Assembly: GCF_011299615.1 (NCBI RefSeq)
Contig: NZ_CP049861.1
Location: 496,001-560,000 of the forward strand
Source: Erysipelothrix sp. HDW6C
GTDB lineage: Bacteria; Bacillota_I; Bacilli_A; Erysipelotrichales; Erysipelotrichaceae
Direction of reading: 5' to 3'
DNA length: 64,000 nucleotides
Shown piece after piece: positions 22,737 to 56,936 of the stretch. The notes under the pieces were generated by a model. That model had not been told where the DNA came from, searched no databases, and saw nothing but the letters and a program-made list of their open reading frames with translations. Positions within the stretch are counted from its first letter, which is position 1; each line of letters opens with the position of its first letter. Made by a program: the position numbers and the translations under genes.

Positions 22737-22790
22737 TGAATTAGTTCAATATTGTTGATTAAATTCAGCAATGAGCCAAGGAGGAAGGCA

Positions 22791-33000: not shown

Positions 33001-36000
33001 ATGAAAAGAATAATTAGGCGAGGGCTTGTACTCTCGCTCACTTTAGCGTTACTGTTAACAGAAATGCTTTTTACTGCGGCTCCGGTTATGGCGGATGAAA
33101 CTGCAGGTATTGATTTAAATGGACTTGTCCAAGAGACAGGGGAACATCGATTGGATGAGAAAACATCAATCTTATCATCCGGGAATACCGTTGGTGTAAC
33201 CTATCGCTTGGTTCCAAATTTTACGGAAGGCGAAGCCCAAGGAACACGTGTGAAAATCTACTTACCATCATTTACCTATAGTGATGGTAAATATGCGGAA
33301 GTTCCGGTTGGAAGTGAACCGACCGCATTGGGGATTCATGGAGAAATTAGTGCGAGTGATGACTGGATTATTCATTCCTCACCGACCAAAGATGGCGGTT
33401 GGTTGGAACTGGAGTATCGTGGCAATATTCGTCCAGGATCAAATCCTGCTTTTGAGGTGAAGTTTTCAACGTACTCAGATGGCAGCAATGGTCCTTACGG
33501 GTCACTTCCTGAAGGTATCACGTTCAATGCATTTGGTTATGTTTCGTACGCAAGTTTCAACAGTTATCCAGATACGGGTTGGGAGACCGCAAATCAATTT
33601 GATCCTGAATCAAAAATCACAATGATTTCTTCTAACTTGAAATGGGAAGCAAACATTAAAGCAGCCGAAGGAGACAATCCTGAACCCATTCCAATGTGGG
33701 ATCGTTATCAATACATTGATTATACTTACGCAATTGAAAATACATCATCAAACTTGAATTCGATAATTGAGGGGTATACAGTCACCTTTAATGTGGATTC
33801 GACGGCGGATACACGCAATGGAATCTTGACCTATGATATTAACCGTTATCGTTACAACAAAGATGCTGAGGCAACACTCAATGAGGATCCTGGTGACACT
33901 ACAGGCCTTTTCGTAGGGGTTCCTGAAAAAGGTGGCATTCTAATTTACGACATTACGGATTGGAAGGAAGGGGAAAAACTTCCAGACCCGATTCCGTATA
34001 CCTACTCTGGGGTAGGTGTTATTGAAATAGACCAGAATACAAAAACGAACAATCAAAAAATAACACCAGAGGGTGCTACAGGTGCAAGCAAACGAATTTA
34101 TCGTATTTCGCTGCCAATGTCGCGACAAGGATTTCCAGATTTACCAACGGACTTTCAAGTCACCGCAATTACGAATGTTATATTTGCGAGTGATGCAAAC
34201 TGGTCAAAAACATCGAGTACAGTTCGCTCGATTGCAGAGCCTTCTTTCGCTGCAACAATCGATGTTCATGCACCACAAAATGAGATAGTTTTTGGTGAGG
34301 AGACAGTTATAACAATTGATAATCTTGTAAGTGGAAGTAATGTTCCGACTTTTGATAGCATGCTTGAGGTTCAGGTCGATGCAGGTTTTCATGCAAACCG
34401 TATACATGTAACATATCCGCGTGCACATGCATCAGATGCTGCATGGAAACCAACGCTGGAAACTGCGGTGTTATCTGATAAAGTTACCGGACAAGATCAA
34501 ATAATGGAGCCATTGACACTGCAACCCATATCGCAAACAATCGTTGGAGACACCGTAGTTGTCGTCTATGATATGAAAGATGTCTATGCGCGTGATGGGT
34601 GGAGTGGAACCGTGCGTGTTCCCGTGCAGAAAACAATCGACCCTAAAGCAAACACGGGTGTATCGATGGATTTAGTCGGCCAAACAACCATTATTGGACC
34701 AATCACTATAACAGGTATTTTTGAATATGTACAATACTCGGCAAACAATGGTGACTTGGGTGCTCCGACAGAGTATCTACAAACAATTAACCGTGAAACA
34801 ACGGATACATTAACACAAAATAGTATTTATCCTAAAGAACTGGTGCCTTTGCACCGCATCGTAGTAGGAGAAACTGCAGCAGCGAATCATACATACGCAG
34901 TAGATTATGACAGCAGCGCGGACTTAGATATTCAAGCGATGAGTGAAGGCGTTGTCATGGCGTCTGGAACATATACTGCATCATTAAATCCCCAGAATGA
35001 AGACATCGCAGTGCATGTCAATTCGCTAACAGTGCAGGCAATACCAACAGCACAATCCATCACGTTCAAAAGTCGTGATGGTAAACAATTCATTCTCAAT
35101 GAATCCAACCATGACTTCGCTATTGCGAAAGAACTTACGTTGGCGGCGCTGGGTCTCGATGATATTGCGACGATTCGAATTGATTTCAATCAATCATCAT
35201 TTGAAGATTACACGTCGCTTGTCATCGTGCATGCAACCATCAATAAAGGCGTTCTAGCAAACCATACAATTCCAGCGGTATTCGATGCGTATCAAGGTGT
35301 GCCTTTCAACAAGGACCGCAGTAAAAAAGTCGATACAAAGATAAATATTAAACTTCCTCAAGTGCTTTCGTTAACGGCACAAAATACCGCAACTTATGGT
35401 TCAAGCAACGGTACTGCCTTCTGGCCATCAAATGCGCAAAATCCCAATCAAGGAAGTCTAAGTGCACCATATGAAGGCATGATAAAAACGGTATACCGTG
35501 CAAACACCCAAGGTGTGATTGCACCGACATCGACCTATACCTTAGACTTTCAAAAACCGAGTGGCAAAGGATATTTGACCTTGGACACACTCCGTTTAAC
35601 GCCAGAATACCTAAACAATGCTGATGTTAAAACGATTGATTTCGTCGACATTGATGGTAAAATTGAACGTATTAATGTCCCAACCAATGATCAAACGATG
35701 CAAGAGGGATTTCAAATCACACTCAAGCGCCCGATTCAAAAAGTTACCATCTATGCAGATAATCTCAAATTATCCACACTCACAAACCTGATTGAAACAC
35801 AGATTCAATCAGATATTGATATGGGAACAACACAAATTGTTAAGGCGGAACTTTCAGGAACCCAACACGCACCGTATCCTGACACAAAGACAGCTTCAAC
35901 AAGCCATGCATATTCGGTCGCAGCAACACAATCATCTGTCAGCGTACGCGCGGTTCATCAGGTTGAGACAGGATTGGGTGTCAAAAACACGTATACGAAT

Positions 36001-39000
36001 TCTGTCTATCGTTACCTTGGCTATCCTTACTACATTCATGACTACACACTTGATATGGGGTATAAATCCATCGGAGGGTTTGTAACATCCTTAACACGAC
36101 CAACAAGTGCAAATCAAAGCAATGATCAAGTGTTGAATTTGACCATTGATGTCCCTGAAACACAATTTGATATGTACTATATCAAGATTCAAGACAAAGC
36201 ACGTGATTATGTCACAACCGTTGATATCTATCGCAAAGAAGGTGACAAGGAAGTGCTCTGGCAGCGTGTTTCCGCAGATGAATGGGTTTCAAATACTCAA
36301 GAAGGTGCTGGATTCTGGCGTATTAATGTCGCCCGACCTGAAAATAGTGGCACAGATCTTTTTGCATCCTATACGGATGTTGAAGGCGTAGTCAACCATC
36401 CGTATTACAAATCGGCATGGGAACCTGCTCCGGAAAATCCTGTAAGTAAAGTTGTCGTGAACTTTAAATTTGATCGTCAAGATCAAACCACTGCACCACA
36501 AATGTCGGGAAGTTCCAATGACCTTGTTGAAACGATGGGACGGTTTTACGCTGTTTCTGAGAAAGAAGCGAAAACTACTACAGTAACAGCTTTGGATACT
36601 TTTGGACTCAAAACCGAAACGACACGAACCGCAAACGCAACCATCAAGTCGGCAGTTATGAAACCTTACGCATACACGAAGACAGGTGTTCAAGATAAAG
36701 TTACCACAGCAAGTGCGACAGTTCTAATGGGTCAAGAGGGCGTTTATGTTGCGTCGCTTTGGAACAAAGATATTTCCAACGCGTACCAAAGTAACAACCA
36801 TTGGAACAGTGTATCATCAGAATATGTTGAATGGATTGCTGATAAAGACTATGCATCATTCCATGATGTCATGCTTTATGAGTTTGTATTCCCCAACAAT
36901 CCCACGACAAATAAAGATTATAATTTTGCGACAACCAGTATGTCAGTCACACCAGTGATGGCAAAAGATGTGTATGATCTCGCAATTTTCAGTGCGGATT
37001 CAACAACGCCACTTATTATTTCTGGTGAGACACTGCGTTCAAACGCGATCATCAAATTTGATACAAAGAGCCAAAACCGTGGAGTAACCGTACATGATGA
37101 CGGCACGCTCACTGTTGCTCTGGGTGAAAATGTTTACCCAACTCGTATTGAAATGAGTGTTAAAGAAATTGTCGGTCATGGTGATGGCAGTGCGGAAATT
37201 AAGGGACGTGATGCAAACACAATGGGGATTACCATCAATGACATTGACGTGCGCTTCGCAGGAATTGTTAATGGGAACATGCCATTAATTGGCACAAGCA
37301 ATGTCTACCGTCTGCCCAGTGGATTTGATCAAAAGAAAACGTTGATGCACACTTCCTCGGCTCAGTTGAGTGGTTACACACCGCGTCTTGGGGCTACCGT
37401 TGGACTTAGCAGTCCATCCGGTTCAACCTATGATTACCAAAGTGATGGAATCACACCAACATCAACTCGATTTAATCTTGATGTCTATAACAACAGTGAA
37501 GCTGATATTAAAGATGTAAAGCTAACCTTTAAACCCGACAGTGCTTTCCGAATGCAAACTATTCAAATCCCCGCAAGTATCTTTTCAGGAGAACAGTGGG
37601 CGGTCAGTGAGGTTGGTGTCGTTCATAATGGTGTTGCAATCGCAATGAATCTCAAGGATATTTTTGTGCTTGAAGGTGATAATTATCGATTGGATACGGC
37701 CCAACTCTTCGAAACCTATCCGGATGTCTTTAAAGTGAAGAAAAGCACATCACGATACAGTGATGTTGAAATCATTCAACAATCATTGGACGCAATTTCT
37801 GTGACGTTCAGTGCGCAAGAAGGAACCCTTTTATATGGGTCACTGGCGCGGAATGCCGATGCGACACTATCAAATCATTTAATTGTCGAGGGGGCAGAAA
37901 TCGTTGTTGATGGGAATTGGGTAGATCCGAGTGAGCATGGGAACTGGGATTGGAATTCACGCCCTGCATTTGTGAGTGATACAACCAATGCCTCAACAAA
38001 CTACACCAAACGCAGTGTAAACAATGTCTCCGCATTCGTAACGCCTGCTCAACCCATTTATGTTAATAACGGGGGTACAAATAACTCACAGACACCAAGT
38101 CTCAATTTAAATCATGATTTATACAACCGTATTGCGAACGTGCAGTTATCGGCAACCATGCGTGATGCAAATTTTGATTTTATTCAGACAAACCGTGAAT
38201 TTAGCGATACAAATTCATTGCAGGCAATTGCATACAACAATGTAGCTGTCGGTGATCAGATCACGATACTTTATGAACTCAAGAATAATGGTAACGCTAA
38301 TAACCTTCCAGTTTTCAATCCAACACTGTTTGTAAACACACCAAAGGGTCTAAAAATTGCCGACTTTAATGTGGTTACAACTGCGGATGCAGTTCCAATA
38401 CTTGACAATAATGTGCTGACGACGCGCGAAACAATCACGTCAAACATTGTCAAAGGGGCAAAGGTAGCGCTGGGAAGTGACCTTGGAAGTGAAAAAAATC
38501 TTGAAGTGCATTTTGGAGATACCGTTCTCCAACCCAATGAGTCTGTTTATGCATGGGTTACATTCGCTGTAATTAATGATTTTGGTGCAGATGTGTATGC
38601 ATCGCAAAATCAAACCATGACATGGAATGCATATGCAAAACCAGATACAACACACCACTACTTTTCTTATGATGTGAGCAGTACTTCAAGTGCACTGATT
38701 CAAAGTGGTCGGACGGATGTCACGATTGATTATGACAAATATCCGGGTGCAGAGAGTGTCGCCCACCTTTATAACACAGCATACCGTAATGCGAATCCAA
38801 ATCAATTAAAAATAGTAAACAGTTATGACGTGGAAAACATCTCGGGTCAGGCAATGCGACTTCAAATCAGTGATGTTATCAATGAAGTCAAGCACGATGA
38901 AACGACACTGTGGATGGATATTGTTTTAAACACGGATGGATTACGGGGGTTTGTCATGACAAAATTCCCAACAATTACCTATCCCAATATGACTTCGAAA

Positions 39001-42000
39001 CACTATACGCCGACATTGACATATCGTGACAAGACTGGGGTGTGGCAACCTTTGACTGAAGATACACCACTTGAACTCTTAATGTCACTGAACGAGATTC
39101 GCGTGTCCTATGGTGTGGTTGGGGCGTATGATGAAAACGGCGAAGTTCAAAAACTTCCCGAGATTTTGTTGCGTGGTGTGGGTCATTGGCAACAAGCAAC
39201 CACCGCGACACGAAAAGACTATCCAATAAAATCAAGTGCAACATTACATTATCAACATGAACACGATGAAATAAGCGTAGCCTTTAAGCAACTTAAGGAA
39301 TCCTCGGTAACGACCTACAAAGGACAACCATCAGTAGGTCTCAACATTCAATCCTTTGATACTGAGATTGAAGCAACGGCACCATACAACGGCACCGCAA
39401 TAGGAAAGACATCGTATCTCCCTCTGGAAACATTTTGGTATAAAATTACAGCTGAAAATATTAAAAATGATCAAGGACTCAAAGGAAATACGGCTTATGG
39501 AAAAGGCCCCCTCAATCAACCGATTATCATTGATAAGGTGCCAGAATATGTAACAACATCTTTGGATCCGTATATCGATGGCGAGATTATGAATGTTGAA
39601 TCAGCCATTGCTGCTGGAGCATTGGATCTGAAATTCTTCACATCAAACACTTCGCGTGACTTTATCTACCCTGAGGTTCATGTGTCAACCGTTCAAGGTC
39701 GTGATGTTGGGGGTTCACAAGCATACCATAATACCAATACAAAATCGGGTGATGGATGGTATGCTACAAACAATGAACCACCTAAAAATACTGCTCTCAA
39801 TCCTGCAAAGGTGATTACGTACCGTGTTTTTACCTATACATTCAAAGATGAAAAAATTGATCGTGGTGAACGCATTGAACTTGCTTACGCGGCAACAGCG
39901 CGTGAACACGATCTGCCCACCGCAACATATAAAGATGATGGACGTACGCTTTATGCACCGTATCTTGGAAACTATGGCCCCAACAATCCTGTTGTATCTT
40001 CAATTCGAACGACAGCAATGGACATGGCTTCATTGCGCCATGATGTTGGGATTACAGGAGTACGCAATCATGAAGAGGAAAAGACAGAGTTCTTAGCATC
40101 TTCATATGCCTATGCACCGGGATCTCTTGTTGCGAAAAACCCAAGTTCAAATCGCACCGTCGTAACCTTCTACGACCAATCCGCAAACAATCAAGTTGTT
40201 CATCAAGGGTTCCTCAATGAAGGGGGCTCACAGTCACTTTATACAACCGTTAATGGCACGACAAAAACAGATGTTTATGATTTGATGACACAAGCACGTG
40301 TCGAAGATGGTGCCATTAAAACTGAAGAAAGAATCCTTTGGGCTCAAGACAGCGTGCAATTAAGTAAAGGATGGTTATACAGTGCTTCAGAAATGGTTCC
40401 CGATACGAAACGTCAAACGCATGGTGTTGATGCTGCCAACTTCTATGAGCACGATGACAGTTTGAATCACTATAACATTGGGTATTTAGGGTACACACCT
40501 TACCTGTATGATGACTATACGTATGCCGTGCAATTGCATGAAATGTTTACGATTCGAATGCATGCCATTAATTACGGTGATGCATCGCTAAATGGGGGAA
40601 TCGAATTCCTCGAAGTTTTACCTGTTGGTATAAGTCCGTATGATGCGAATGGCGAATTGTCGCTTATCGCTACGTTGAATGATAAGAGACTCGATACGAA
40701 AAAACTTGATATCACAATCATTCAAACACCACAATCAGCGGACCCTGTTTATACTGCCCCGGAAACAGAAGGGGTGCCGTATGTTGTACGCATTCGTGTT
40801 GATGAAAAAGTGGGGCAATGGTGGAACCGCGGTAATCAGGATGAATACCAATTGACGGTTTCAATGAGAGTACGCGTTGAAAAAGAAGTGACACCCAACG
40901 CAAGTGGCCTTTCACTTTGGCGTGATACGTTAAGAGTATCCCTCATGAATCCTTCAGAAAATCCAAACTATGAGATCTATGATAGCCGTTATGGTGGTTT
41001 TAATCGTAGCTTAAGTTCTTACGATCGCCAAAACCTATACAACGATGCGATGGTACAAGGTATGAATGCACCGGTATCGGCAATTTCAGAAAGTAGTTCA
41101 ACCAGTTACTACTCATTTGAACCGTATGGATTGTATGTAAGGGGCCTTAACTCCAAAGCCACCACACAGATTGTTGATGGTGAAAAACAAGCAGTAGCAC
41201 AGGATGTTATTGCGATGCGAAAGCCAACCTTACGCATATGGACACAACCAAAAGTAAAAGGCGTGTTACCGTATGATGATACTTTCGAATCGTTTGTGTT
41301 ACCATATTATGAAACATTTGAATTACAAGCGACCGTTGAAAATGTGCAACTGGAAGCACACAATGAATATAACCGTAATAACAGTGGATACAGTTCAAAT
41401 CAAAATGATGACATTTGGCGTAATGCACCGCAAACAATTGGCGGTGCCCGTGGAGCATGGTTTGAACCGGTAGTGACGATGACACTTTCAGAAGGTATTG
41501 AACCTGTCGATGAGAATGGACAGGTGATTCCAAGTGGAGGCAGTGGTATTCAATTTAATGCCATGCGCCAAAATAGTGGCATCAATACCGTATCAAGCAG
41601 CGAAGACATCACGCGTTATTTTGATGTTACCTATGAATCAATCAATGAAAATGATGGTTCCAAACGTGGTGTCTTGAAATTTACGTCCAACGATGCGCAT
41701 GGTGCTACAGTTGGATATCTGCAAAACCTTGTCATTACACCGAAAGTAAAAACAGTCGGTGCACCATCATCACAAGGGAGTGCGCCGTTAACGCATTATC
41801 AAGACGTCCTAACTGTTGCGACATCAAGACGCGATGTATTCAATCCGGTTGTCTCTTCACAACACACAACAGGATCTGTACCTTCGCAAAGTACGCTTGT
41901 AATGAATAACGGCAGTTACTTGCGGGATAATGATCGCAAACGTCGGGACAGTTCCAGTACGTGGGCAGGAGCAACAATTACAAACCCTGGCATGATGCCA

Positions 42001-45000
42001 TTACCGGAACGTATGATTGCGGCAACGCAAAGTTTCGATGCCAAGACGATTGTTAATCTTCAAAAATGGTCACAATTACCTGCATGGAATACAATCCTTA
42101 AAGATGTTGTTGGGACAGCAGGGGGAGCATGGGGATCAACATCCCTTAGAACCCGACGCCCAAGTATTCAAAATCAAACAACAGTAGGTACGGATGCAAA
42201 CGGTGTTGTTCAAGAAACAGCATTGGTTGATCCAGCGGGTAAATTTTGGATCCGCACCACAGTTTCCAATCCAACTGAGCCCCATGTTAATCCGTATGTA
42301 CAATTGCAACAATCCAGTGATATTTATCACTCAACTTTTGTAATGACCTATGAAATCAGCGCACTTTCAAAGTTAACCGATAAGGTTCGCATTGCAACGG
42401 ACCGAGGGATTCTTGATCGCCCTGCTTTTGAGGCCCTTGGGTATAAAGTGGATGTCATTAATGCGGGAGCATTGATGCCTGAGGAAACACGTCAACATGT
42501 TCAATTTAAAGTAACCTTACCACCAGATGATAGTCTTGGGATTGCAGGGAGATTGAAGACGGATGCCTCCTTTACATTCATGTTTGAATCACAAATGATT
42601 GCTGGTTATGAAACAGGGTTTGACACGGATACACCAACATGGCAAAGTGATGCATTGCGCGTTGATTCATTCGTATCGATTGAACCGATTGAAGACGCGA
42701 AAGCGACCGTAGTTCAAGAACCGTCGTATGTCCGTTACCTGCAACGTCGTGATGAAACCTACGATATTGATCGCAATGGAACACTCACAAGTCTGTTCGC
42801 ATTTGATGGCGCAATGCTTGAAGTCATTAAACCTGCGGCACAGATTCGTAAGAATACAAGTAAGCCCCGCGAATTGTATTCAAATGGAAAAAGTGGTGAC
42901 ACCTATTTCAATACTTCAGAAGTTATTGATTACATGATGACCTATGTTGAAAACACGGGATCATCCGTTAAAGAATTTGTTGTTGAGGATATTATTCCCA
43001 CAACACAATCTGCTGATGACAGTATCAACACAAGCAAACTTCCCATTAATACAGATGTTTCGTATGTAAGTACGGGATCATGGCTCCTTCCGGATACAAC
43101 ACTTGTTGCACTTGCGGAAGCGGGATTAAGTGTTGATGATGTCTTTCAAATACACGTATATGTATCCAACGACATTGCGGTCAATGGGTATGAACCGATT
43201 GATGCATCGTGGACATTGCTTAATCCCCATGACACTTCGCTTCTAACAAACACGCAAATTCCGCTCGAAGGCACGCTTCGTAAAACCCGAAAAGTACGTT
43301 GGGTTATTACATCAAGAGATACGGATAACTTCTTAATACCGACAGGATTTAAATTGAATATTGATGCGGATCCGGACACACCAGGAATCCAAGATGTGAT
43401 TGAAACAGACCCTGAGAATCACAGTGTCAGTCTGTACCCATCATCGGTCACCGATGCAGCAATACATGTTGGTGTGAGGGCAGAATCTGATGCGAAGACA
43501 ACACTATTTATTCATAACACTGCCCAAGTGTGGAGCAATTATGTTGAAGACTATCGTATAAAATCAGCACAAAGCGAAACACGTTCATACCTTACGCCTT
43601 CGCGTCCGGTGGTAAATGTTGAGTATAGCTCACGATACTATCGTTCTGACAGCACGGGACAAAGACCAGAACACGAACGCTTTGGATGGAGTGATATTCG
43701 GACAATCAATCCACCACTCAGTCCATACCTAAAATTCAAAGGACGTTTTATTAATGGAGATGATACGATGTGGGCTTCTGATGAAAGTCATATTTATAAA
43801 TCAGATGCACTTATCAATCCCAATGTAACGTTCATGTTGCCGCGTGCGATGATGATCAATCCAACATCATTCACCTATGTCGCAATGGACTCCATTGATA
43901 GCAACCATGCGTTACACGATGACTACCGTTCGCAATATGTTCTTAAAAAGGAACAATCCAATATGTGGACATGGCGTGTTGTTCGTAAGGATGGCACGAT
44001 CAACAATACCGATATCAAGATGGTCAAATCGTATACGGGACCATGGCGCGATGCAGAACAAAATGTTGTCAACATTCGTTTTGAAGGAAGCATTGCTCCA
44101 GGCGATGTTATAGAAGTTGAGTTCATTGGTGAAGTGAATGAATACGAACCTGCTTCAACAGGAGACGACTTGAAGTCCTCCGCATATATTACCAACAACA
44201 CAGGGTTACTCCAACCACTGAACTCGCGTCAAAACAACAAGAATATTCTTGGCTATGGTTTGGATACGTATGATTTTGATGAGAATGGTATGACAAATGA
44301 CCGTCTTGTGTTTGCGGAACGAACGATGTTTGAATATGCAAATTATGATAACTTTGGAAAACGGAAAGTTGCTTACTCTGACTTGAATAAGGCTGGGACG
44401 ATTCACCCTTATGCCACACCTGTATCGGAAGGTCATAACTATCGTTTTGAGATATCTTTGGATAACTCAAAAGCACAAACAGCCAGCCCATATCCGTATC
44501 CGATGATGTACGATGTCTTGCCACATCTGGGTGATACGAATATCATGAACACAAAGGCAAGAAATAGTGCGTTCAAAGGATGGCTCCAACCAGATTCAAT
44601 TCGACTTACCAATGAAGGTATCAACAATAAGACTTACGGTAAGTCAGAATACACAGTGTATGTGGGTCCCTTTACAAAAGATGGTAATGGAAAAATAAGT
44701 AAAGGCGTGCATCCAAACGCTGATGTTGTTGCGAAACAACAGTTCTATACGGATATGTTGGATGCGAAACAGCGGAATGCTTACTTTGTGAGTTTGTCTG
44801 AGTTGGGGAATGATGAAGGATTGCTAAAAGAGGTTGAATCCATAATGGTACTCTTCACCAATCCGCAAGAGGCACTTACGGGTCAGCAAAAACTGAAACT
44901 TAGCTACGAATTGCAGGCACCGATTAATGCACCGGTACTCTTTGAGGAGCCAACAAATCCCAATGCATACCGTGATTATGTTGGTTGGAACTCTTTTGTA

Positions 45001-48000
45001 GGAACGCAAAAAGTTGTCGGATTTATGCCGCAAGAATCAAACATGGCAGGATCGTATGTCATGCAATATGCAGAAAAAACAGCAATTGGAAATTACATCT
45101 GGTTTGATGCAAACTACGATGGCATTCAAAATGAAGGAACATTAAAGACAGATGCAAACGGCCGTCAACTCCTTCAAGACTTTATTGACTTGGATGGGGA
45201 TGGCACGATTGATGATCCTGGAATCAATGGCGTTCGTGTAACACTTAAGTCGCCAAATGGTTACGATGTCGATGCACAAGGTCGCAGCATTGTTGTGGTT
45301 GATAACATATGGTATGTCATCGACGAAAGTACAGGAGACCTGTTACGTGATGATGTATTCAACATGCCAATTATCGCAAACGGCCCCACATCATTTATCA
45401 GTGAGTCCGATATTAATGGAAATGCTGGATACTATATACTTCCGAATATTGCGTCAGGAAACTACCGATTGGAGTATGTATTCCCCAAAGACTACGACAC
45501 TTATGGATTGACAACACCAGTAATTGGTGAAAATGCAGCATTGGATGTTTATGAACCGCAAGAAACCTATACACTGGGGAAATCGGTCCATCGTGCAATG
45601 ACATTAACCATGATCTCATCTGAATTCCAAATCGACGCAACAATGAGTGATGCACGCCGCATGGCTTTCGATGTAGGTCTTGGTGAAACTATCGACATTG
45701 GTGGAAACGTCTTCTTAGAAAATCCAGAGACATTTGATGGTTATTACCAAGCAGGTGAGAAACCACTTCCTAACTATCAATTGACACTTCGACACGAAGA
45801 TGGTACCCTTGTCAGAAATCTTAATGGTAAGGCGATGACTGCAGTCACGGATCGTAACGGAAATTATCAGTTCAAAGGACTGCCATTGAATAGCAACTAT
45901 CGAATCACGATTCAAGATGAAAATGGTGTTACATCGGTTTCCAAACCTATCTCGCCATTTATTCACAATACCGATCCACGTGCTGAGCGAGGCGATAATG
46001 ATGGTTATCGTGATGTAGAAGGACACTTTACATCACACGTCTTTACAACCCATGCAACTGCTAAGAAAAATGGTATTTATGAAATGATTCAAGGCATTGA
46101 CTTTGCCTTCTACCAACGGACGACTTACGGTTCCATTGGAAATCGCGTTTGGGATGATCGCAACAGAGATGGAATACAACAGACAGATGAACCAGGCCTT
46201 GCAAACCAGCTAATGATTCTGGAACAATACCGCAATATTAATGGGGAGTGGGTAATTCAAGAGAACTTCATGATGACAACGCAGTCAAATCATGATGGTT
46301 ATTACTACTTTGATAAACTACCAACCTTGGTTGTTATTGATAATGTGGAATATCCACTAGGATACCGTGTTCGTACTGGAAAATTACTGGATGGTTATAC
46401 AGTCACACTTCCGCATGTAAATGGGTCTGATGCGACAAGCGACAGTGATTTCTTTGCAGATGGTAGCATGAGGCCCGATGCCATGATTGTGTTGGGTGAA
46501 AACGTGGATGGTCTCATTTTGGCAACAAACAATCTGGATATTGATCTTGGATTGGTTGAACATGCCCGTGGTGGCATTCATGGAAAAGTATGGGATGATA
46601 TTCGTTTCGATGGAATCAATCATGCTTTAAAAGTTGGCGAAGAAACCGCAATCCGTCTCGAAGTGTATGCCGATGGACACTGGCAACAAGTTATGATGGA
46701 TGCAAATGGAAAAATGGAACTACCAGAGTCCACGCGAAGTGCTCAAAAAGTAATGCAAGTTGTAGCGAGTACCTATGCATTTGAGAATCTGTACCAAGTC
46801 CATCCACAAACTCTGATTCCTTTTGAATATCGTTTGGTTGCAGAAAATATCGATCTCACCCAACGAATTAGTCCGCAACGACAAGGAACAGATCGCGCGC
46901 TAGACAGTGATTTTGTGGAAAGCGATCGTAGCGCTACCATCACCGCAATGACAGATGGATTTACAATCTTTGATGAAGCTGTGCGAACTCCAGAGGGTAC
47001 TCATCCACTCTATACAGCCCAAACTCAGACACACATTGACTTGGGTTTGCATAAACTCTCAACACATGCTCAGATTGGAAACCGAGTGTGGAATGACCAC
47101 AATCGTGATGGTATTCAAAATGATGATGAGGTCGGAGTGGAAGGTGTTAAGGTGCAACTTCAAGTCTATAAAGACCAAGCGTGGGTTGCAGTGGAGCGCG
47201 GTGAAACAACAACAGATGAAAAAGGAAATTATACCTTTAATGTCACTGTTGCAGACGAGGGTCATATTCCCTATCAGTATCGTGTGTTAATCAATCGGGA
47301 AGCAGAACATGCAGTCACGCTTTACAAACAGGGTGATGAGACATTGGATAATGATTTCCGTGATGCAAACGATGACGATAGTGGCATTGTCGAAACAGAG
47401 CACACGCTTATTTCGCGAGAAATCCAACTTGTCGAAACAGATGTTAATGGGTATGCAGATTATGAAACCGTGGCGGACGACACTGATGTTGACGCAGGTC
47501 TCATTGTCTATGCACCCGTTCAGACAATCGGTGATCTTGTCTATCATGATCGCAACAACAATGGCCAGTTTGACATGGATGATGTTGGATTAGCGAACAT
47601 CTTGGTAAAACTTGAGAAATACAATCGCGAAAGCGAAATGTGGGAACCTTTCGCTGAAACAAATACAAATGAAGATGGATTCTACGAGTTCAAAGTTCTT
47701 GCCTTTGACATGGATCGAACATCAGCAGAATACATGACTGCGAATCAATATCGTGTGGCGGTTGTGTATCCAAACAACATGGTTGCTATCAATAACTCAA
47801 GGTTTAAAGAGACAGCGATTACTTATGATACAACGCAACATATGAGTGTAAGTGATACCATCGAACTTGTTGAACACGACATATCGGGGCGTGCTGATCG
47901 TGAGACATTACGCAGTGATGTGGATGTTGACCTTGGGATGCATGCTTATAGCACAACGGTTACAATTGGAAACCGTGTGTGGATGGATGTCAACGAAGAT

Positions 48001-48489
48001 GGTATTGAAGACGCAGCTGAAGTCGGTGTTGAAAATGTTCGTATCGACTTGCAACGTTTCAATGAAGAACTTCAGCAGTGGGTTCAGGTGGATACACGTT
48101 ATACGGATGCATTGGGAAACTATCAATTTGATGTTGCACCTACAGATTTTGATTCCAATTCACTGTACTATATGAAGACAATCAAATATCGCGTCCGTGT
48201 ATTCAAACCAGAAGGCACACTCTTTGCGAAATCAAATGTCGCAATTGAGAATATTGGGTCCGATGGTGAAGCAATTTCATATCAGCTGAATCGATACGAT
48301 GGTCACGATCTCACAACAATAGCGGATAACCTCGACCAAAACTTTGGTTTGGTTGTGATAAAACCGAAAGTGAATGTGATTGTACCAACAGGGAATGCTC
48401 CTGGTATTTTTATCACCCTGGCGCTCGTCTCTGGATTTGCATTCCTTGGATTGAAGAAAAAACGTGACGACGATGAAATCACAGATTAA
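33001..48489 (+). CDS. Giant surface protein with SdrD B-like stalk and VPTGN sorting signal (5162 aa)
   Basis: The signal peptide is about 1-32 (basic start, hydrophobic core, VMADE). Roughly 4000 residues of beta-rich, mostly non-repetitive sequence follow without a domain I can name. Residues 4027 to about 5118 hold seven SdrD/Cna-B-like domains. Most begin IGNRVWxDxNxDGIQ and contain calcium-site-like loops such as DRNRDGIQQTDE and DHNRDGIQNDDE. The end is VIVPTGNAPG (V5128 to G5131 core), a hydrophobic helix and KKKRDDDEITD. It is a sortase signal that deviates from LPXTG and is closer to the QVPTG of streptococcal T3-type pilins. It is likely a wall- or pilus-linked fibrous adhesin. The sortase gene overlaps its 3' end. 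The frame is intact over 15.5 kb. Confidence 0.93.
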   Translation: MKRIIRRGLVLSLTLALLLTEMLFTAAPVMADETAGIDLNGLVQETGEHRLDEKTSILSSGNTVGVTYRLVPNFTEGEAQGTRVKIYLPSFTYSDGKYAEVPVGSEPTALGIHGEISASDDWIIHSSPTKDGGWLELEYRGNIRPGSNPAFEVKFSTYSDGSNGPYGSLPEGITFNAFGYVSYASFNSYPDTGWETANQFDPESKITMISSNLKWEANIKAAEGDNPEPIPMWDRYQYIDYTYAIENTSSNLNSIIEGYTVTFNVDSTADTRNGILTYDINRYRYNKDAEATLNEDPGDTTGLFVGVPEKGGILIYDITDWKEGEKLPDPIPYTYSGVGVIEIDQNTKTNNQKITPEGATGASKRIYRISLPMSRQGFPDLPTDFQVTAITNVIFASDANWSKTSSTVRSIAEPSFAATIDVHAPQNEIVFGEETVITIDNLVSGSNVPTFDSMLEVQVDAGFHANRIHVTYPRAHASDAAWKPTLETAVLSDKVTGQDQIMEPLTLQPISQTIVGDTVVVVYDMKDVYARDGWSGTVRVPVQKTIDPKANTGVSMDLVGQTTIIGPITITGIFEYVQYSANNGDLGAPTEYLQTINRETTDTLTQNSIYPKELVPLHRIVVGETAAANHTYAVDYDSSADLDIQAMSEGVVMASGTYTASLNPQNEDIAVHVNSLTVQAIPTAQSITFKSRDGKQFILNESNHDFAIAKELTLAALGLDDIATIRIDFNQSSFEDYTSLVIVHATINKGVLANHTIPAVFDAYQGVPFNKDRSKKVDTKINIKLPQVLSLTAQNTATYGSSNGTAFWPSNAQNPNQGSLSAPYEGMIKTVYRANTQGVIAPTSTYTLDFQKPSGKGYLTLDTLRLTPEYLNNADVKTIDFVDIDGKIERINVPTNDQTMQEGFQITLKRPIQKVTIYADNLKLSTLTNLIETQIQSDIDMGTTQIVKAELSGTQHAPYPDTKTASTSHAYSVAATQSSVSVRAVHQVETGLGVKNTYTNSVYRYLGYPYYIHDYTLDMGYKSIGGFVTSLTRPTSANQSNDQVLNLTIDVPETQFDMYYIKIQDKARDYVTTVDIYRKEGDKEVLWQRVSADEWVSNTQEGAGFWRINVARPENSGTDLFASYTDVEGVVNHPYYKSAWEPAPENPVSKVVVNFKFDRQDQTTAPQMSGSSNDLVETMGRFYAVSEKEAKTTTVTALDTFGLKTETTRTANATIKSAVMKPYAYTKTGVQDKVTTASATVLMGQEGVYVASLWNKDISNAYQSNNHWNSVSSEYVEWIADKDYASFHDVMLYEFVFPNNPTTNKDYNFATTSMSVTPVMAKDVYDLAIFSADSTTPLIISGETLRSNAIIKFDTKSQNRGVTVHDDGTLTVALGENVYPTRIEMSVKEIVGHGDGSAEIKGRDANTMGITINDIDVRFAGIVNGNMPLIGTSNVYRLPSGFDQKKTLMHTSSAQLSGYTPRLGATVGLSSPSGSTYDYQSDGITPTSTRFNLDVYNNSEADIKDVKLTFKPDSAFRMQTIQIPASIFSGEQWAVSEVGVVHNGVAIAMNLKDIFVLEGDNYRLDTAQLFETYPDVFKVKKSTSRYSDVEIIQQSLDAISVTFSAQEGTLLYGSLARNADATLSNHLIVEGAEIVVDGNWVDPSEHGNWDWNSRPAFVSDTTNASTNYTKRSVNNVSAFVTPAQPIYVNNGGTNNSQTPSLNLNHDLYNRIANVQLSATMRDANFDFIQTNREFSDTNSLQAIAYNNVAVGDQITILYELKNNGNANNLPVFNPTLFVNTPKGLKIADFNVVTTADAVPILDNNVLTTRETITSNIVKGAKVALGSDLGSEKNLEVHFGDTVLQPNESVYAWVTFAVINDFGADVYASQNQTMTWNAYAKPDTTHHYFSYDVSSTSSALIQSGRTDVTIDYDKYPGAESVAHLYNTAYRNANPNQLKIVNSYDVENISGQAMRLQISDVINEVKHDETTLWMDIVLNTDGLRGFVMTKFPTITYPNMTSKHYTPTLTYRDKTGVWQPLTEDTPLELLMSLNEIRVSYGVVGAYDENGEVQKLPEILLRGVGHWQQATTATRKDYPIKSSATLHYQHEHDEISVAFKQLKESSVTTYKGQPSVGLNIQSFDTEIEATAPYNGTAIGKTSYLPLETFWYKITAENIKNDQGLKGNTAYGKGPLNQPIIIDKVPEYVTTSLDPYIDGEIMNVESAIAAGALDLKFFTSNTSRDFIYPEVHVSTVQGRDVGGSQAYHNTNTKSGDGWYATNNEPPKNTALNPAKVITYRVFTYTFKDEKIDRGERIELAYAATAREHDLPTATYKDDGRTLYAPYLGNYGPNNPVVSSIRTTAMDMASLRHDVGITGVRNHEEEKTEFLASSYAYAPGSLVAKNPSSNRTVVTFYDQSANNQVVHQGFLNEGGSQSLYTTVNGTTKTDVYDLMTQARVEDGAIKTEERILWAQDSVQLSKGWLYSASEMVPDTKRQTHGVDAANFYEHDDSLNHYNIGYLGYTPYLYDDYTYAVQLHEMFTIRMHAINYGDASLNGGIEFLEVLPVGISPYDANGELSLIATLNDKRLDTKKLDITIIQTPQSADPVYTAPETEGVPYVVRIRVDEKVGQWWNRGNQDEYQLTVSMRVRVEKEVTPNASGLSLWRDTLRVSLMNPSENPNYEIYDSRYGGFNRSLSSYDRQNLYNDAMVQGMNAPVSAISESSSTSYYSFEPYGLYVRGLNSKATTQIVDGEKQAVAQDVIAMRKPTLRIWTQPKVKGVLPYDDTFESFVLPYYETFELQATVENVQLEAHNEYNRNNSGYSSNQNDDIWRNAPQTIGGARGAWFEPVVTMTLSEGIEPVDENGQVIPSGGSGIQFNAMRQNSGINTVSSSEDITRYFDVTYESINENDGSKRGVLKFTSNDAHGATVGYLQNLVITPKVKTVGAPSSQGSAPLTHYQDVLTVATSRRDVFNPVVSSQHTTGSVPSQSTLVMNNGSYLRDNDRKRRDSSSTWAGATITNPGMMPLPERMIAATQSFDAKTIVNLQKWSQLPAWNTILKDVVGTAGGAWGSTSLRTRRPSIQNQTTVGTDANGVVQETALVDPAGKFWIRTTVSNPTEPHVNPYVQLQQSSDIYHSTFVMTYEISALSKLTDKVRIATDRGILDRPAFEALGYKVDVINAGALMPEETRQHVQFKVTLPPDDSLGIAGRLKTDASFTFMFESQMIAGYETGFDTDTPTWQSDALRVDSFVSIEPIEDAKATVVQEPSYVRYLQRRDETYDIDRNGTLTSLFAFDGAMLEVIKPAAQIRKNTSKPRELYSNGKSGDTYFNTSEVIDYMMTYVENTGSSVKEFVVEDIIPTTQSADDSINTSKLPINTDVSYVSTGSWLLPDTTLVALAEAGLSVDDVFQIHVYVSNDIAVNGYEPIDASWTLLNPHDTSLLTNTQIPLEGTLRKTRKVRWVITSRDTDNFLIPTGFKLNIDADPDTPGIQDVIETDPENHSVSLYPSSVTDAAIHVGVRAESDAKTTLFIHNTAQVWSNYVEDYRIKSAQSETRSYLTPSRPVVNVEYSSRYYRSDSTGQRPEHERFGWSDIRTINPPLSPYLKFKGRFINGDDTMWASDESHIYKSDALINPNVTFMLPRAMMINPTSFTYVAMDSIDSNHALHDDYRSQYVLKKEQSNMWTWRVVRKDGTINNTDIKMVKSYTGPWRDAEQNVVNIRFEGSIAPGDVIEVEFIGEVNEYEPASTGDDLKSSAYITNNTGLLQPLNSRQNNKNILGYGLDTYDFDENGMTNDRLVFAERTMFEYANYDNFGKRKVAYSDLNKAGTIHPYATPVSEGHNYRFEISLDNSKAQTASPYPYPMMYDVLPHLGDTNIMNTKARNSAFKGWLQPDSIRLTNEGINNKTYGKSEYTVYVGPFTKDGNGKISKGVHPNADVVAKQQFYTDMLDAKQRNAYFVSLSELGNDEGLLKEVESIMVLFTNPQEALTGQQKLKLSYELQAPINAPVLFEEPTNPNAYRDYVGWNSFVGTQKVVGFMPQESNMAGSYVMQYAEKTAIGNYIWFDANYDGIQNEGTLKTDANGRQLLQDFIDLDGDGTIDDPGINGVRVTLKSPNGYDVDAQGRSIVVVDNIWYVIDESTGDLLRDDVFNMPIIANGPTSFISESDINGNAGYYILPNIASGNYRLEYVFPKDYDTYGLTTPVIGENAALDVYEPQETYTLGKSVHRAMTLTMISSEFQIDATMSDARRMAFDVGLGETIDIGGNVFLENPETFDGYYQAGEKPLPNYQLTLRHEDGTLVRNLNGKAMTAVTDRNGNYQFKGLPLNSNYRITIQDENGVTSVSKPISPFIHNTDPRAERGDNDGYRDVEGHFTSHVFTTHATAKKNGIYEMIQGIDFAFYQRTTYGSIGNRVWDDRNRDGIQQTDEPGLANQLMILEQYRNINGEWVIQENFMMTTQSNHDGYYYFDKLPTLVVIDNVEYPLGYRVRTGKLLDGYTVTLPHVNGSDATSDSDFFADGSMRPDAMIVLGENVDGLILATNNLDIDLGLVEHARGGIHGKVWDDIRFDGINHALKVGEETAIRLEVYADGHWQQVMMDANGKMELPESTRSAQKVMQVVASTYAFENLYQVHPQTLIPFEYRLVAENIDLTQRISPQRQGTDRALDSDFVESDRSATITAMTDGFTIFDEAVRTPEGTHPLYTAQTQTHIDLGLHKLSTHAQIGNRVWNDHNRDGIQNDDEVGVEGVKVQLQVYKDQAWVAVERGETTTDEKGNYTFNVTVADEGHIPYQYRVLINREAEHAVTLYKQGDETLDNDFRDANDDDSGIVETEHTLISREIQLVETDVNGYADYETVADDTDVDAGLIVYAPVQTIGDLVYHDRNNNGQFDMDDVGLANILVKLEKYNRESEMWEPFAETNTNEDGFYEFKVLAFDMDRTSAEYMTANQYRVAVVYPNNMVAINNSRFKETAITYDTTQHMSVSDTIELVEHDISGRADRETLRSDVDVDLGMHAYSTTVTIGNRVWMDVNEDGIEDAAEVGVENVRIDLQRFNEELQQWVQVDTRYTDALGNYQFDVAPTDFDSNSLYYMKTIKYRVRVFKPEGTLFAKSNVAIENIGSDGEAISYQLNRYDGHDLTTIADNLDQNFGLVVIKPKVNVIVPTGNAPGIFITLALVSGFAFLGLKKKRDDDEITD

Positions 48490-49090
48490 ATATGCAATGC
48501 TAAGTTGTGTCGTACTTCTCAGTGCGACCCTCTCGCAAGCATATCCTGTTATAAAAGAAACGAAGAGACTCGAAATAAAAACGATTGAGAATAAAGATTA
48601 TATTGGAACCCTTAAGGTGGAAGGTATCTTCAACGAAGCCCTGTACGCACCTAATGACAACGAAAAGTACTTATTTCATAATGCTGAGGGGTTGGATGAT
48701 CGTCATGGCGAACTCTTTCTATCTGCAAACAGTGGTTCAGTGATGGGCGATTTTACATTAATCTATGGTCACAATAACTATGATGGAAGCAAGTTTGGTA
48801 ATTTGAGTTATCTGCTCGGTTTGGATGTAATTCCAGATTTGATTTACGAACAAGAAAAAGAAACACACACCTATGCATTTCTCTTTGCTTTTGAGTTTGA
48901 GGACGGAACAAGTGTGTTGGAACAGCAACTGTACGGTGAACAACGCATGGTGTATATTGAAACACTGAAGCAGCGGGCGATAAAATCAGATCATGAACAA
49001 ACAACAGTTGGTGATATTATTTTCCTACAAACATGCATCGGATCATATGGCGATCAACGCTATGTATTTGCCTTTACGAGGGTGTCGTAA
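48473..49090 (+). CDS. Class B-like sortase
   Basis: This membrane-linked transpeptidase has an N-terminal signal/anchor (AMLSCVVLLSATLSQAYPV). The catalytic His100 lies in LIYGHNNYDGSKFGNL, Cys188 in IIFLQTC and Arg196 in GDQRYVFAF. The G-H-N, TC and R pattern and the region between (HTYAFLFAFEFED) fit class B-type sortases better than class A. The 205-residue length is slightly short. The ATG at 48473 lies inside the end of the giant gene and no clear Shine-Dalgarno is seen, so translational coupling is likely; a GTG at 48464 is an alternative start. Its most likely substrate is the adjacent VPTGN protein. Whether it links to peptidoglycan or polymerises pilins is unknown. Confidence 0.87.
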   Translation: MKSQIKYAMLSCVVLLSATLSQAYPVIKETKRLEIKTIENKDYIGTLKVEGIFNEALYAPNDNEKYLFHNAEGLDDRHGELFLSANSGSVMGDFTLIYGHNNYDGSKFGNLSYLLGLDVIPDLIYEQEKETHTYAFLFAFEFEDGTSVLEQQLYGEQRMVYIETLKQRAIKSDHEQTTVGDIIFLQTCIGSYGDQRYVFAFTRVS

Positions 49091-49479
49091 TGAAGAAAGT
49101 GGTCTATCTTTGTGTCGTGATTTTGGCGTTGTTCATCGTATTGCAACCAGAGTTATCACGCCATATCCTAGGATTTAAACTGTTTATGATTCATGATCAA
49201 TCAATGCATGTTGCGATCGCAAGACAATCGGATAATGTACCACAAACAGGAATGGTTGTGATTCAAAATCACGATAAGTATGCCGTGGCATCTTCAAAAG
49301 ACGCAGCAATAATTATGAGTGAAGTACATGTGTATACCAAACAAAAAGAAGATACACTGTATCGTGTTGTCTTCGCTGTCCCACTTCATAGATTACTCGT
49401 GGGTGTTGTGTTTATTCTCGTTATAAAAGGAGGGTATGAATGGAAAAAAAGAAAATTACGATCATTGGGGTCGTCTTAG
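49090..49479 (+). CDS. Signal peptidase I-like membrane protein, apparently degenerate (129 aa)
   Basis: The gene starts at ATG 49090, overlapping the sortase stop by one base (TAATG). It has an N-terminal helix (VVYLCVVILALFIVL), then FKLFMIHDQSMHVAI and TGMVVIQNHDKYAV. These line up loosely with the SGSMEP and GDVVVV boxes of SipW-type signal peptidases. Near the C-terminus YRVVFAVPLHRLLVG and a second helix match the usual ending of that family. The Ser of the SM box is present, but I see no catalytic Lys or HRI-type motif, so it is probably inactive or a chaperone, as described for SipA of streptococcal pilus islands. The family call is tentative. An internal VPQTG is not a sorting signal. 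Confidence 0.6.
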   Translation: MKKVVYLCVVILALFIVLQPELSRHILGFKLFMIHDQSMHVAIARQSDNVPQTGMVVIQNHDKYAVASSKDAAIIMSEVHVYTKQKEDTLYRVVFAVPLHRLLVGVVFILVIKGGYEWKKRKLRSLGSS

Positions 49480-49784
49480 TATTCGCGGTTGTCTTCTTTG
49501 GCTATAAACAATACAACCGTACAGAGGTAAATCATGATCAGTTTACCGTGACATTAAATCAGCGATTCAAAACTGAAGTCCTGAACGACACAATCTATCT
49601 TTACATCCCAATTAATACCAACCTTGGTCATACAACTGTAAGTGTCTTAATTGATGGTAAGAAGGTTGATGCTCAAGAATTTCAATATATGATTTACAGT
49701 ATTGATACAAAGGTACCTCAGGAGAGTATTCGAACATTTGCTCTGAACGAGTTACCACTAACCATAAGTGTAATCGTATCCTGA
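49440..49784 (+). CDS. Small membrane-anchored extracytoplasmic protein (114 aa)
   Basis: The frame begins 40 bases before the previous gene ends, with AGGAGGG just upstream, so it is coupled to it. A basic start and one helix (ITIIGVVLVFAVVFFGYK) are followed by about 90 residues of mostly beta-forming sequence, including YLYIPINTNLGHTTVSVLID. No cysteine or known motif is visible. As the last gene of the giant protein-sortase cassette it may help assembly or be a minor surface component. I do not recognise the family. Confidence 0.75.
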   Translation: MEKKKITIIGVVLVFAVVFFGYKQYNRTEVNHDQFTVTLNQRFKTEVLNDTIYLYIPINTNLGHTTVSVLIDGKKVDAQEFQYMIYSIDTKVPQESIRTFALNELPLTISVIVS

Positions 49785-49786
49785 AA

Positions 49787-49817
49787 AGAAGTCGGAAAAT
49801 CTCCGGCTTCTTTTTAT
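49787..49817. terminator. Terminator of the sortase cassette (bidirectional)
   Basis: AGAAGTCGGA (49787-49796) pairs with TCCGGCTTCT (49802-49811), one wobble pair included, followed by TTTT. The convergent membrane-protein gene ends at 49814, so the hairpin can serve both directions; the minus-strand tail is a weaker T-run. Confidence 0.85.
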
Positions 49818-55265: not shown

Positions 55266-56936
55266 ATGACAAACAAACTAAAAAAAATTCTGAATGTAAC
55301 TATTGCAGTAATGATAATGATGTTAGGAGCTGGCGCAATTCATGCGGCAGGTGACGAAACGATAGCAGATATATTCTTGGACTCAAAACTTGCATCTGCA
55401 GTAGCGAATCAATTAGGGAAAGCTGTGTCAGATCCCGTTGAACAAACTGAATTGAATTCTATAAAGGAAATTTTAATTACAAATGAAGCTGTTGCTGATT
55501 TAACAGGTCTTGTAAGACTAGAGAACTTGATTCGATTGAAAGTTACAAATGGTTCACTTACTGATTTATCAGAATTATCCTCAATGACCCAATTAAGGTT
55601 TCTCTATATTGGGTCCAATGATATTACAGATCTTGAGCCTATTCGCAGTTTAGTGAATCTTGAAGGATTGGAAATTTATAAGAATGCAATTTCCGATATT
55701 ACACCACTGAGCAATATGCCGAAATTAACCTACTTGCATGCATACGGTAATGCCATAACCGACATAGCGCCATTGGCAGCTCTGCCAAGAATTGAAAGGT
55801 TGGATTTAGGACTTAATCCTGTAGGGGATGTATCACCACTTGCTAACGCCGTATCATTGACAAGTCTTCAGTTAAACTCAACAGACATTTCTTCAATTGA
55901 ACATTTGTCACAACTTGTAAATTTGAAGAAACTTGGTTTCTTTAATAATAAGGTAGAAGATATTAGTGTACTTGAAAATCATCCAACACTGAAATCACTT
56001 GATTTCAGTAAGAACAACGTGAGTGATATCAGCATATTAGAAAACATACAAACATTAACAGAGCTTCGATTCAGTGAGAATAATGTCCAAGATATCGAAG
56101 CATTAAAAAACTTAAAACAACTTACAATTCTGGATGCTAGTATAAATAAAATACAGGATATTCAAGATTTGCAGTTACTAACACAGGTGGATACGCTCTT
56201 AATAAATGACAATGAAATTCACGACATTAGCTTCTTATCAGAGTTTAACAGTATGTCGAAATTCTCTGCCGCTAACCAGAAAATTGCACTTGATACTGTG
56301 GATCAAGGAGTATCTACAGAAATAAAAATCAGCGATAGAAATAATGAGGTTCCTGCTTTGAATTTCGTGACACAAGGTCTTTATGAGAATGGTGAACTTA
56401 CATGGGAGCATGCAGAATCCAATCAATTGACCTGGGATAATGGAACGAACTTCAGCGGAAGCATTAATCAGGATGTTTCTGAAATTCAGTTGAATAATTA
56501 TACTGTTACTTTTGATATGGGGTCTGCAGATTCCAATCAAATATCCAGTCAAACTATTGTAGAAGGCGACACAATCGTTCCCGTTGAAGCACCACAAAGA
56601 GACGGGTTCACATTTGAAGGATGGGGAATAAATACGCCTACCGGTTACATAAAGTGGGATTTTATAAACGATAAAGTTCATAATGATATCACGCTGGTTG
56701 CACAATGGGCAGCAATTGCTAAACCCAATTTGCCACATGATGATACACAGATACCACTCAATCCAAACAACTCAGATGAATTGCCACAAAGTGATGCAAC
56801 CCAACCAACACAAATAATGTTGGGAAATAGCAAACTTCCACAAACTGGGATTTCGAATCACTCACTATTAATCGGAGCTATCTTGATGATTACTGGATGT
56901 GCTGCCATCGCAATAAGAAAGGGAAAAGCATCCTAA
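55266..56936 (+). CDS. Internalin-like leucine-rich repeat wall protein (LPQTG)
   Basis: The signal peptide is about 1-28 (ending IHAAG). After a short cap region, about 12 leucine-rich repeats of 22 residues run from about 65 to 330, with the internalin-type pattern LxxLxxLxxNxIxDIxxL; examples are NLEGLEIYKNAISDI and LKSLDFSKNNVSDI. An Ig-like inter-repeat region follows, then a Listeria-Bacteroides (Flg_new/B-repeat) module near 415-485 containing YTVTFDMGSADSN and GFTFEGWG. A Pro/Asp-rich linker precedes LPQTG (524-528), a hydrophobic helix and a basic end. It is likely a sortase-anchored protein-binding surface factor; the ligand is unknown. Confidence 0.93.
   Translation: MTNKLKKILNVTIAVMIMMLGAGAIHAAGDETIADIFLDSKLASAVANQLGKAVSDPVEQTELNSIKEILITNEAVADLTGLVRLENLIRLKVTNGSLTDLSELSSMTQLRFLYIGSNDITDLEPIRSLVNLEGLEIYKNAISDITPLSNMPKLTYLHAYGNAITDIAPLAALPRIERLDLGLNPVGDVSPLANAVSLTSLQLNSTDISSIEHLSQLVNLKKLGFFNNKVEDISVLENHPTLKSLDFSKNNVSDISILENIQTLTELRFSENNVQDIEALKNLKQLTILDASINKIQDIQDLQLLTQVDTLLINDNEIHDISFLSEFNSMSKFSAANQKIALDTVDQGVSTEIKISDRNNEVPALNFVTQGLYENGELTWEHAESNQLTWDNGTNFSGSINQDVSEIQLNNYTVTFDMGSADSNQISSQTIVEGDTIVPVEAPQRDGFTFEGWGINTPTGYIKWDFINDKVHNDITLVAQWAAIAKPNLPHDDTQIPLNPNNSDELPQSDATQPTQIMLGNSKLPQTGISNHSLLIGAILMITGCAAIAIRKGKAS

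What the first reader, a model, noticed from the sequence alone, without database searches (positions are those of the whole stretch)
49090..49479. Degenerate signal peptidase-like protein in the sortase cassette
Seen: an SM box, a TGMVVI box and a C-terminal RVVFAVP-helix, like SipW-type peptidases, but no Lys or HRI-type catalytic partner and only 129 residues. Known: SipA in streptococcal pilus islands lacks catalytic residues and aids assembly. Inferred: a pilus-type chaperone recruited independently or shared by descent.
Basis: partly seen in the sequence, partly recalled or inferred. Interest (0 to 1): 0.55.

Follow-up and report, generated by a model that had tools for sequence, protein, structure and literature searches.

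The report
Small membrane partner in sortase cassette
A 129-residue membrane protein sits in a tightly packed gene set with a giant surface adhesin and its own anchoring enzyme; its first third faintly resembles a signal peptidase whose cutting machinery has been lost, but the resemblance is partial and the fold is unproven.

Summary
The ORF is real: 49090-49479 (129 aa), third of four overlapping genes: a 5162-aa SdrD_B adhesin ending IVPTGNAPG, a class B sortase, this protein and a 114-aa one-helix protein, ending at a hairpin terminator. The set recurs in order in only one relative, another Erysipelothrix. There the ortholog (29% over 101 aa) keeps LG-x-KLF and the Ser but not the Met; the TGMVVI and RVVFAVP boxes are not kept. 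No family or PDB entry matches. Against a SipW (S26B) profile built here, residues 4-46 (first membrane helix, LGFKLF, SM) score above every one of 2000 shuffles; the C-terminal box does not, nor does the ortholog. Both membrane helices are predicted well, but the ~72-residue outer part is far shorter than in SipW (107-145), lacks the GD and THRI boxes, and AlphaFold2 gives it no fold even with SipW sequences supplied. Best reading: a dedicated accessory membrane protein of a class B sortase anchoring cassette, perhaps a stripped-down, non-cutting SipW descendant. It resembles streptococcal SipA in setting (class B sortase, VPTG-type signal) but not in demonstrable kinship. 'Degenerate signal peptidase' is plausible, not shown; 'SipA-type chaperone' is an analogy.

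The parts
33001..48489 (+). giant surface adhesin, 5162 aa; C-terminal part with five SdrD_B domains; non-LPXTG sorting signal IVPTGNAPG (VPTG at 48382-48393)
48473..49090 (+). class B sortase, 205 aa (P0002), start overlaps the adhesin gene by 17 nt; YGH, LQTC and Arg conserved with the ortholog
49090..49479 (+). the finding: 129-aa protein with two membrane helices (about residues 4-22 and 94-112), P0001; start overlaps the sortase stop (TAATG)
49168..49185 (+). LGFKLF, the segment best conserved with the ortholog and aligned with FGYKxF of SipW peptidases
49201..49206 (+). SM dipeptide (S38-M39); SI in the ortholog
49246..49263 (+). TGMVVI box; not conserved in the ortholog
49363..49383 (+). 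RVVFAVP leading into helix 2; resemblance to SipW GKVVFKIP not above chance
49440..49784 (+). 114-aa protein with one N-terminal membrane helix (P0003), conserved with the ortholog P0006 (E 1e-11); its ribosome-binding site GGAGG (49429-49433) lies inside the gene of the finding
49782..49816 (+). hairpin with T run at the end of the gene set (RNA fold -19.7 kcal/mol)

Best explanation
The gene encodes a small accessory membrane protein dedicated to one surface-anchoring cassette: giant adhesin, class B sortase, this protein and a second small membrane protein, made from one overlapping gene set. Both ends are in the cytoplasm and about 72 residues face outwards beside the membrane-anchored sortase and the membrane-spanning sorting signal of the adhesin. 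I infer that it does not cut; it works as a non-catalytic partner that holds or presents the adhesin's C-terminal signal, or the sortase, at the membrane. Its first third most likely descends from a SipW-type (S26B) signal peptidase that lost its catalytic core, which would make it a functional parallel of streptococcal SipA reached from a different branch. Shown: gene set, its conservation, predicted topology, N-terminal similarity. Inferred: loss of catalysis, partner role, origin.
For: Four genes overlap by 17, 1 and 40 nt and end at a hairpin. The same order recurs in G151/L041, with the sortase at 40-42%, this protein at 29% over 101 aa (E 6e-4) and P0003 at E 1e-11. The parts occur together: an adhesin segment in 2 of 272 family genomes, this protein's profile with strong hits only in the same 2 of 315 order genomes. 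N-terminal similarity to SipW: own-profile HMM E 0.0011 in 4374 ORFs, the best distinct protein after the SipW set and two clear S26B-like relatives, above the canonical SPase I rows; 0 of 2000 shuffles; 13.9-16.8 bits and 0 of 3000 shuffles in each of six half-samples. Two-helix topology as in SipW. A class B sortase with a VPTG-type signal is the setting of SipA. A class B sortase and a SipW lie together in 2 of 80 other loci, one as a fusion.
Against: No Pfam, NCBIfam or PDB hit to any SPase. The C-terminal half and the ortholog give no significant SipW match. In hhalign two copies of the housekeeping sortase, surely unrelated, score slightly above it, as do two canonical SPases and two degenerate neighbours of SipW: six of 582 control ORFs in all. 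Outer part of about 72 residues against 107-145 in 37 of 44 SipW rows (the other 7 are cut, fused or many-helix). AlphaFold2 with 26 SipW rows supplied gave no strands in the outer part (pLDDT about 44-53). No functional data.
Confidence: 0.45

Rival explanations
1. An orphan two-helix accessory protein of the same cassette, with no kinship to signal peptidases; LGFKLF and SM are chance in a fast-evolving membrane protein.
For: The ortholog does not match SipW and lacks the Met and TGMVVI; C-terminal half at chance; AlphaFold2 gives no SPase core; the neighbour P0003 is also an orphan membrane protein without any family.
Against: N-terminal score beyond all 2000 shuffles and robust in half-samples; LG-x-KLF, the segment that aligns with SipW, is what the two orthologs share best; two-helix topology fits SipW.
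Confidence: 0.41
2. A minimal but active signal peptidase using S38 with K86 as the general base, specific for the cassette's adhesin.
For: S38 aligns with Ser in the ortholog and K86 is invariant in the pair; the Ser-Lys spacing of 48 is within the range recalled for SPase I (40 to 55, recalled).
Against: No GD box, no box around the Lys, no GDN box; outer part too short; K86 lies near the membrane exit, not at the catalytic position of the alignment; the genome holds two intact SipWs and a canonical SPase; the adhesin has an ordinary AxA-type signal peptide by eye.
Confidence: 0.05
3. A true relative by descent of streptococcal SipA, brought in with the class B sortase.
For: Same setting: class B sortase and (E/Q/V)(V/P)PTG-type signal.
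Against: No match of P0001 to any PDB chain, SipA 4n31 included, at E up to 10; two helices instead of one; nearest profile is S26B; SipA has Asp and Gly at the catalytic places whereas Ser is kept here.
Confidence: 0.03

Closest known systems
SipA of the Streptococcus pyogenes FCT pilus islands (PDB 4n31, PMC4049620)
   Same: Small membrane protein beside a class B sortase and a VPTG-type substrate; reported as lacking the catalytic apparatus.
   Different: SipA has a solved SPase I fold (about 135 aligned residues in the crystal) and one membrane helix, and is needed for pilus polymerisation; here no fold, two helices, a shorter outer part, a single giant adhesin rather than pilins, and no sequence match.
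SipW-type signal peptidases, S26B (NCBIfam TIGR02228)
   Same: Two-helix topology and N-terminal segment helix-LG[FY]KxF-SM.
   Different: No GD box, no THRI box, outer part about 72 instead of 107-145 residues, no family hit.
Degenerate S26B-like proteins lying next to SipW genes in other Bacilli (L170:886-1479, L165:849-1478, L167:336-881)
   Same: SipW-like membrane proteins without the SM motif.
   Different: They keep most of the length (181-209 aa) and lie in SipW operons, not sortase cassettes.
Class B sortase Spy0129 and its EVPTG pilin (PMC3019223)
   Same: Class B sortase paired with a VPTG signal.
   Different: Cassette sortase P0002 is nearer to ordinary SrtB (best PDB hits Listeria Lmo2181 and B. 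anthracis SrtB); no pilin genes here.

Membership tests
S26B signal peptidase (SipW) | Match to TIGR02228 or a Pfam peptidase model | tested here: not met
   No such hit at E up to 10; a profile built here gives E 0.0011, N-terminal only
S26B signal peptidase (SipW) | Catalytic Ser in an SM box | tested here: inconclusive
   S38-M39 present without the usual Pro; Ser aligned but Met replaced by Ile in the ortholog
S26B signal peptidase (SipW) | GD(I)ITF and THRI boxes with the general base | tested here: not met
   TGMVVI only, not conserved; no His box
S26B signal peptidase (SipW) | Two membrane helices | tested here: met
   Hydropathy and both AlphaFold2 models
S26B signal peptidase (SipW) | Outer domain of SPase size | tested here: not met
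   About 72 residues against 107-145 in 37 of 44 SipW rows
S26B signal peptidase (SipW) | SPase fold of the outer domain | tested here: inconclusive
   pLDDT below 55 in the outer part in both runs, so no fold search was run
Streptococcal SipA | Sequence relation to SipA | tested here: not met
   P0001 has no PDB match at E up to 10
Streptococcal SipA | Encoded with a class B sortase and VPTG-type substrate | tested here: met
Streptococcal SipA | Needed for sortase-dependent polymerisation | not testable with these tools
   needs a deletion mutant
Class B sortase (neighbour P0002) | SrtB model match and His-Cys-Arg | tested here: met
   TIGR03064 E 5e-11 (below the equivalog cut-off), PDB SrtB hits, H100, C188, R196 conserved

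The most novel reading that the evidence does not exclude
A second, independent case of a signal peptidase turned into a non-cutting partner of a class B sortase: SipW stripped to its membrane helices and a short outer loop, evolving fast and serving the anchoring of a 5000-residue adhesin. Together with SipA this would say that class B sortases handling VPTG-type signals need a peptidase-derived docking partner, and that the membrane part of the peptidase, not its active site, is what matters.
Probability: 0.25. Interest if true: 0.6.

Novelty: new variant of a known kind. Interest (0 to 1): 0.34.

Why it matters
Why streptococcal pili need SipA is still unclear (PMC4049620, Introduction). 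A minimal protein in the same setting, outside Streptococcus and with almost all of the peptidase gone, would narrow what the partner must supply and offers a small system for testing it. If the peptidase resemblance is chance, the finding is still a conserved orphan partner of a class B sortase.

Tried and rejected
Rejected: remote hit of the two-row profile to the C-terminal domain of a D-Ala-D-Ala carboxypeptidase (L004, E 0.0015 over 4110 ORFs, but the locus had been picked by similarity to P0001 itself). Rejected: GroES hit (E 0.066). Rejected: paralogy with P0003 (P-value 0.25). Rejected: the 410-aa gene at 31580-32812 as part of the cassette; it is a genus-wide family, 11 of 13 genomes, five matches in this genome. 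First AlphaFold2 run on two rows: mean pLDDT 48.9; second on A5 (P0001, P0004 and 26 of the 44 SipW rows): 65.8, helices only; a fold search on such models would mean nothing, so none was run. Viral-contig scans with P0001 and with A3 found no relative; plasmids held one ordinary SrtB.

Rows dropped: L169 and L055 were taken out of the 44 SipW rows before the profile of 42 was made; of 86 relatives the tool kept 80. The six half-samples are random draws of 21 of the 42. For the outer-domain lengths 7 of 44 SipW rows (cut, fused or many-helix) are left out.

Full report
What is there. The window lies in a 2.36-Mb genome. Its genus is Erysipelothrix by inference: the syntenic locus in a genome of the same genus (G151) is the 5053-base contig titled Erysipelothrix sp. 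AS09scLD_209 (L041). The ORF is as reported, 129 aa. It is the third of four genes on the + strand: adhesin 33001-48489, sortase 48473-49090, the finding 49090-49479, P0003 49440-49784. Each overlaps the next (17, 1 and 40 nt), P0003 has its GGAGG inside the finding's gene, and a strong hairpin with a T run follows P0003. The terminator scan lists this hairpin only in a short form on the - strand, so the + strand reading rests on the fold.

Neighbours. The sortase matches the class B model TIGR03064 (E 5e-11, below its equivalog cut-off) and SrtB structures (best Lmo2181, E 3e-8); His100, Cys188 and Arg196 are shared with its ortholog. The adhesin ends in VPTGNAPG, helix and charged tail, and carries SdrD_B domains; its ortholog in G151 ends in VPTGESYS. 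Other anchored proteins of the window end in LPATG, LPTTG and LPQTG, so VPTG with its own sortase is particular to this set. Spy0129 of S. pyogenes, a class B sortase, takes (E/Q/V)(V/P)PTG and works in an operon with SipA (PMC3019223, passages seen).

Spread. Among 13 genomes of the genus the sortase is found in 2. An adhesin segment is found in the same 2 of 272 family genomes. The profile of the finding with its ortholog finds the same two at E below 1e-65 in 315 order genomes; the other six hits, at E 0.002 to 0.02, lie in frames of other sizes or with stops and are what chance gives. A search with the finding alone gave 54 of 272 genomes at E up to 1, all weak apart from its own. The genome-contig scan with the sortase pair returned 80 loci, of which only L041 is this cassette by its sortase score and by the profile of the finding. 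So the set travels as a unit and is rare; in G151 it has one more small protein, P0007, a relative of P0003 (E 4.5e-8).

Is it a degenerate signal peptidase? Family libraries and PDB give nothing. I collected SipW-type peptidases from 13 genus genomes and 60 class genomes; 44 rows passed, 42 were used. MAFFT without guidance lines up ILGFKLFMIHDQSM with xFGYKxFxVxSxSM, TGMVVI with GDIITF and RVVFAVP with GKVVFKIP. Statistics back only the first: 15-16 bits over residues 4-46, E 0.0011 among 4374 ORFs, 0 of 2000 shuffles; 0 of 3000 with the 33 SipWs from outside the genus, 1 of 3000 with the 9 from inside it, 0 of 3000 in each of six half-samples. Masking shows that the helix, LGFKLF and SM all contribute (16.0 falls to 7.5, 5.5 and 4.5 bits). 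The C-terminal part scores 0.9 bits, reached by 488 of 2000 shuffles; that of the ortholog 6.9 bits, reached by 72 of 2000. In hhalign the finding scores 28.3 against a maximum of 25.7 in 400 shuffles, but its own ORF ranks seventh of 582 control membrane-type ORFs, behind two SipW-neighbour degenerate proteins, two canonical SPases and two copies of the housekeeping sortase; the last are false positives and show the limit of this test. The two-row profile of finding and ortholog scores 29.4 against a maximum of 26.5 in 400 column shuffles, driven by the finding. The ortholog alone is at chance.

Structure. Hydropathy gives two helices, 4-22 and 94-112, in the finding and a like pair in the ortholog. 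AlphaFold2 on the pair: mean pLDDT 48.9. With 26 SipW rows added, which leans towards SPase, the helices are confident but residues 31-90 stay near 44-53 with no strands. The outer part has about 72 residues; 37 of 44 SipW rows have 107-145. If it comes from SipW, most of the peptidase core is gone.

Mechanism. Shown: one overlapping gene set, conserved in two species; predicted membrane topology; no complete catalytic signature. Inferred from the families: the adhesin's C-terminal helix stays in the membrane until the sortase cuts at VPTG and transfers it. A small two-helix protein made with them, probably in matched amounts by coupled translation, is best read as a partner that holds the sorting signal or the sortase. 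SipA is the precedent: SPase fold, catalytic residues replaced, peptide cleft kept, essential for polymerisation (PMC4049620, passages and Introduction). SipW also serves assembly in other bacteria: C. perfringens sipW-bsaA lies beside an srtB gene, although BsaA polymerised without srtB there, which warns against reading adjacency as function (PMC7395162, passages). A class B sortase fused to a SipW exists in L055.

Novelty. Paper searches with SipA, signal peptidase-like, class B sortase and SipW and with Erysipelothrix, sortase and signal peptidase listed no paper whose title or listed abstract start describes this cassette; I saw only the search listings for the Erysipelothrix papers, and the library holds open-licence papers only. 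I file it as a new variant of a known kind, a class B sortase anchoring cassette with a dedicated membrane partner, and leave membership in S26B and in SipA open or unmet as tabled.

Noticed in passing
L055:4167-5549: A 460-aa protein in a Pseudobutyrivibrio MAG fuses an intact SipW-type signal peptidase (SGSMEP, LHRV; 108 bits) to a class B sortase (Pfam Sortase E 8e-8), beside SipW-substrate-like genes.
   Followed up: partly
L170:886-1479; L165:277-852 and 849-1478; L167:336-881: SipW genes in several Bacilli have neighbours that are SipW-like but lack the SM Ser (DQMEPTI, IDEKVAD) or the whole motif: apparent non-catalytic S26B relatives in SipW operons.
   Followed up: partly
L139 (own genome C1:746516 region): An intact SipW lies next to a large SpaA/DUF7601/DUF5979 pilin-like protein with a SipW-type leader, and the genome search showed no sortase gene there.
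   Followed up: no
L032:227-574: The G151 cassette carries a third small membrane protein, P0007, a tandem relative of P0003/P0006.
   Followed up: partly
20294-22486 and 22752-28439: Lacto-N-biose phosphorylase next to an LPXTG-anchored GH101 endo-alpha-N-acetylgalactosaminidase, after sugar ABC transporter genes: looks like a mucin O-glycan use cluster (transporter by eye).
   Followed up: no
55266-56936: Internalin-like LRR protein with Listeria-Bacteroides repeat and LPQTG anchor.
   Followed up: no
31580-32812: Membrane protein with Ig-like domain belonging to a family with several copies across the genus (11 of 13 genomes).
   Followed up: partly
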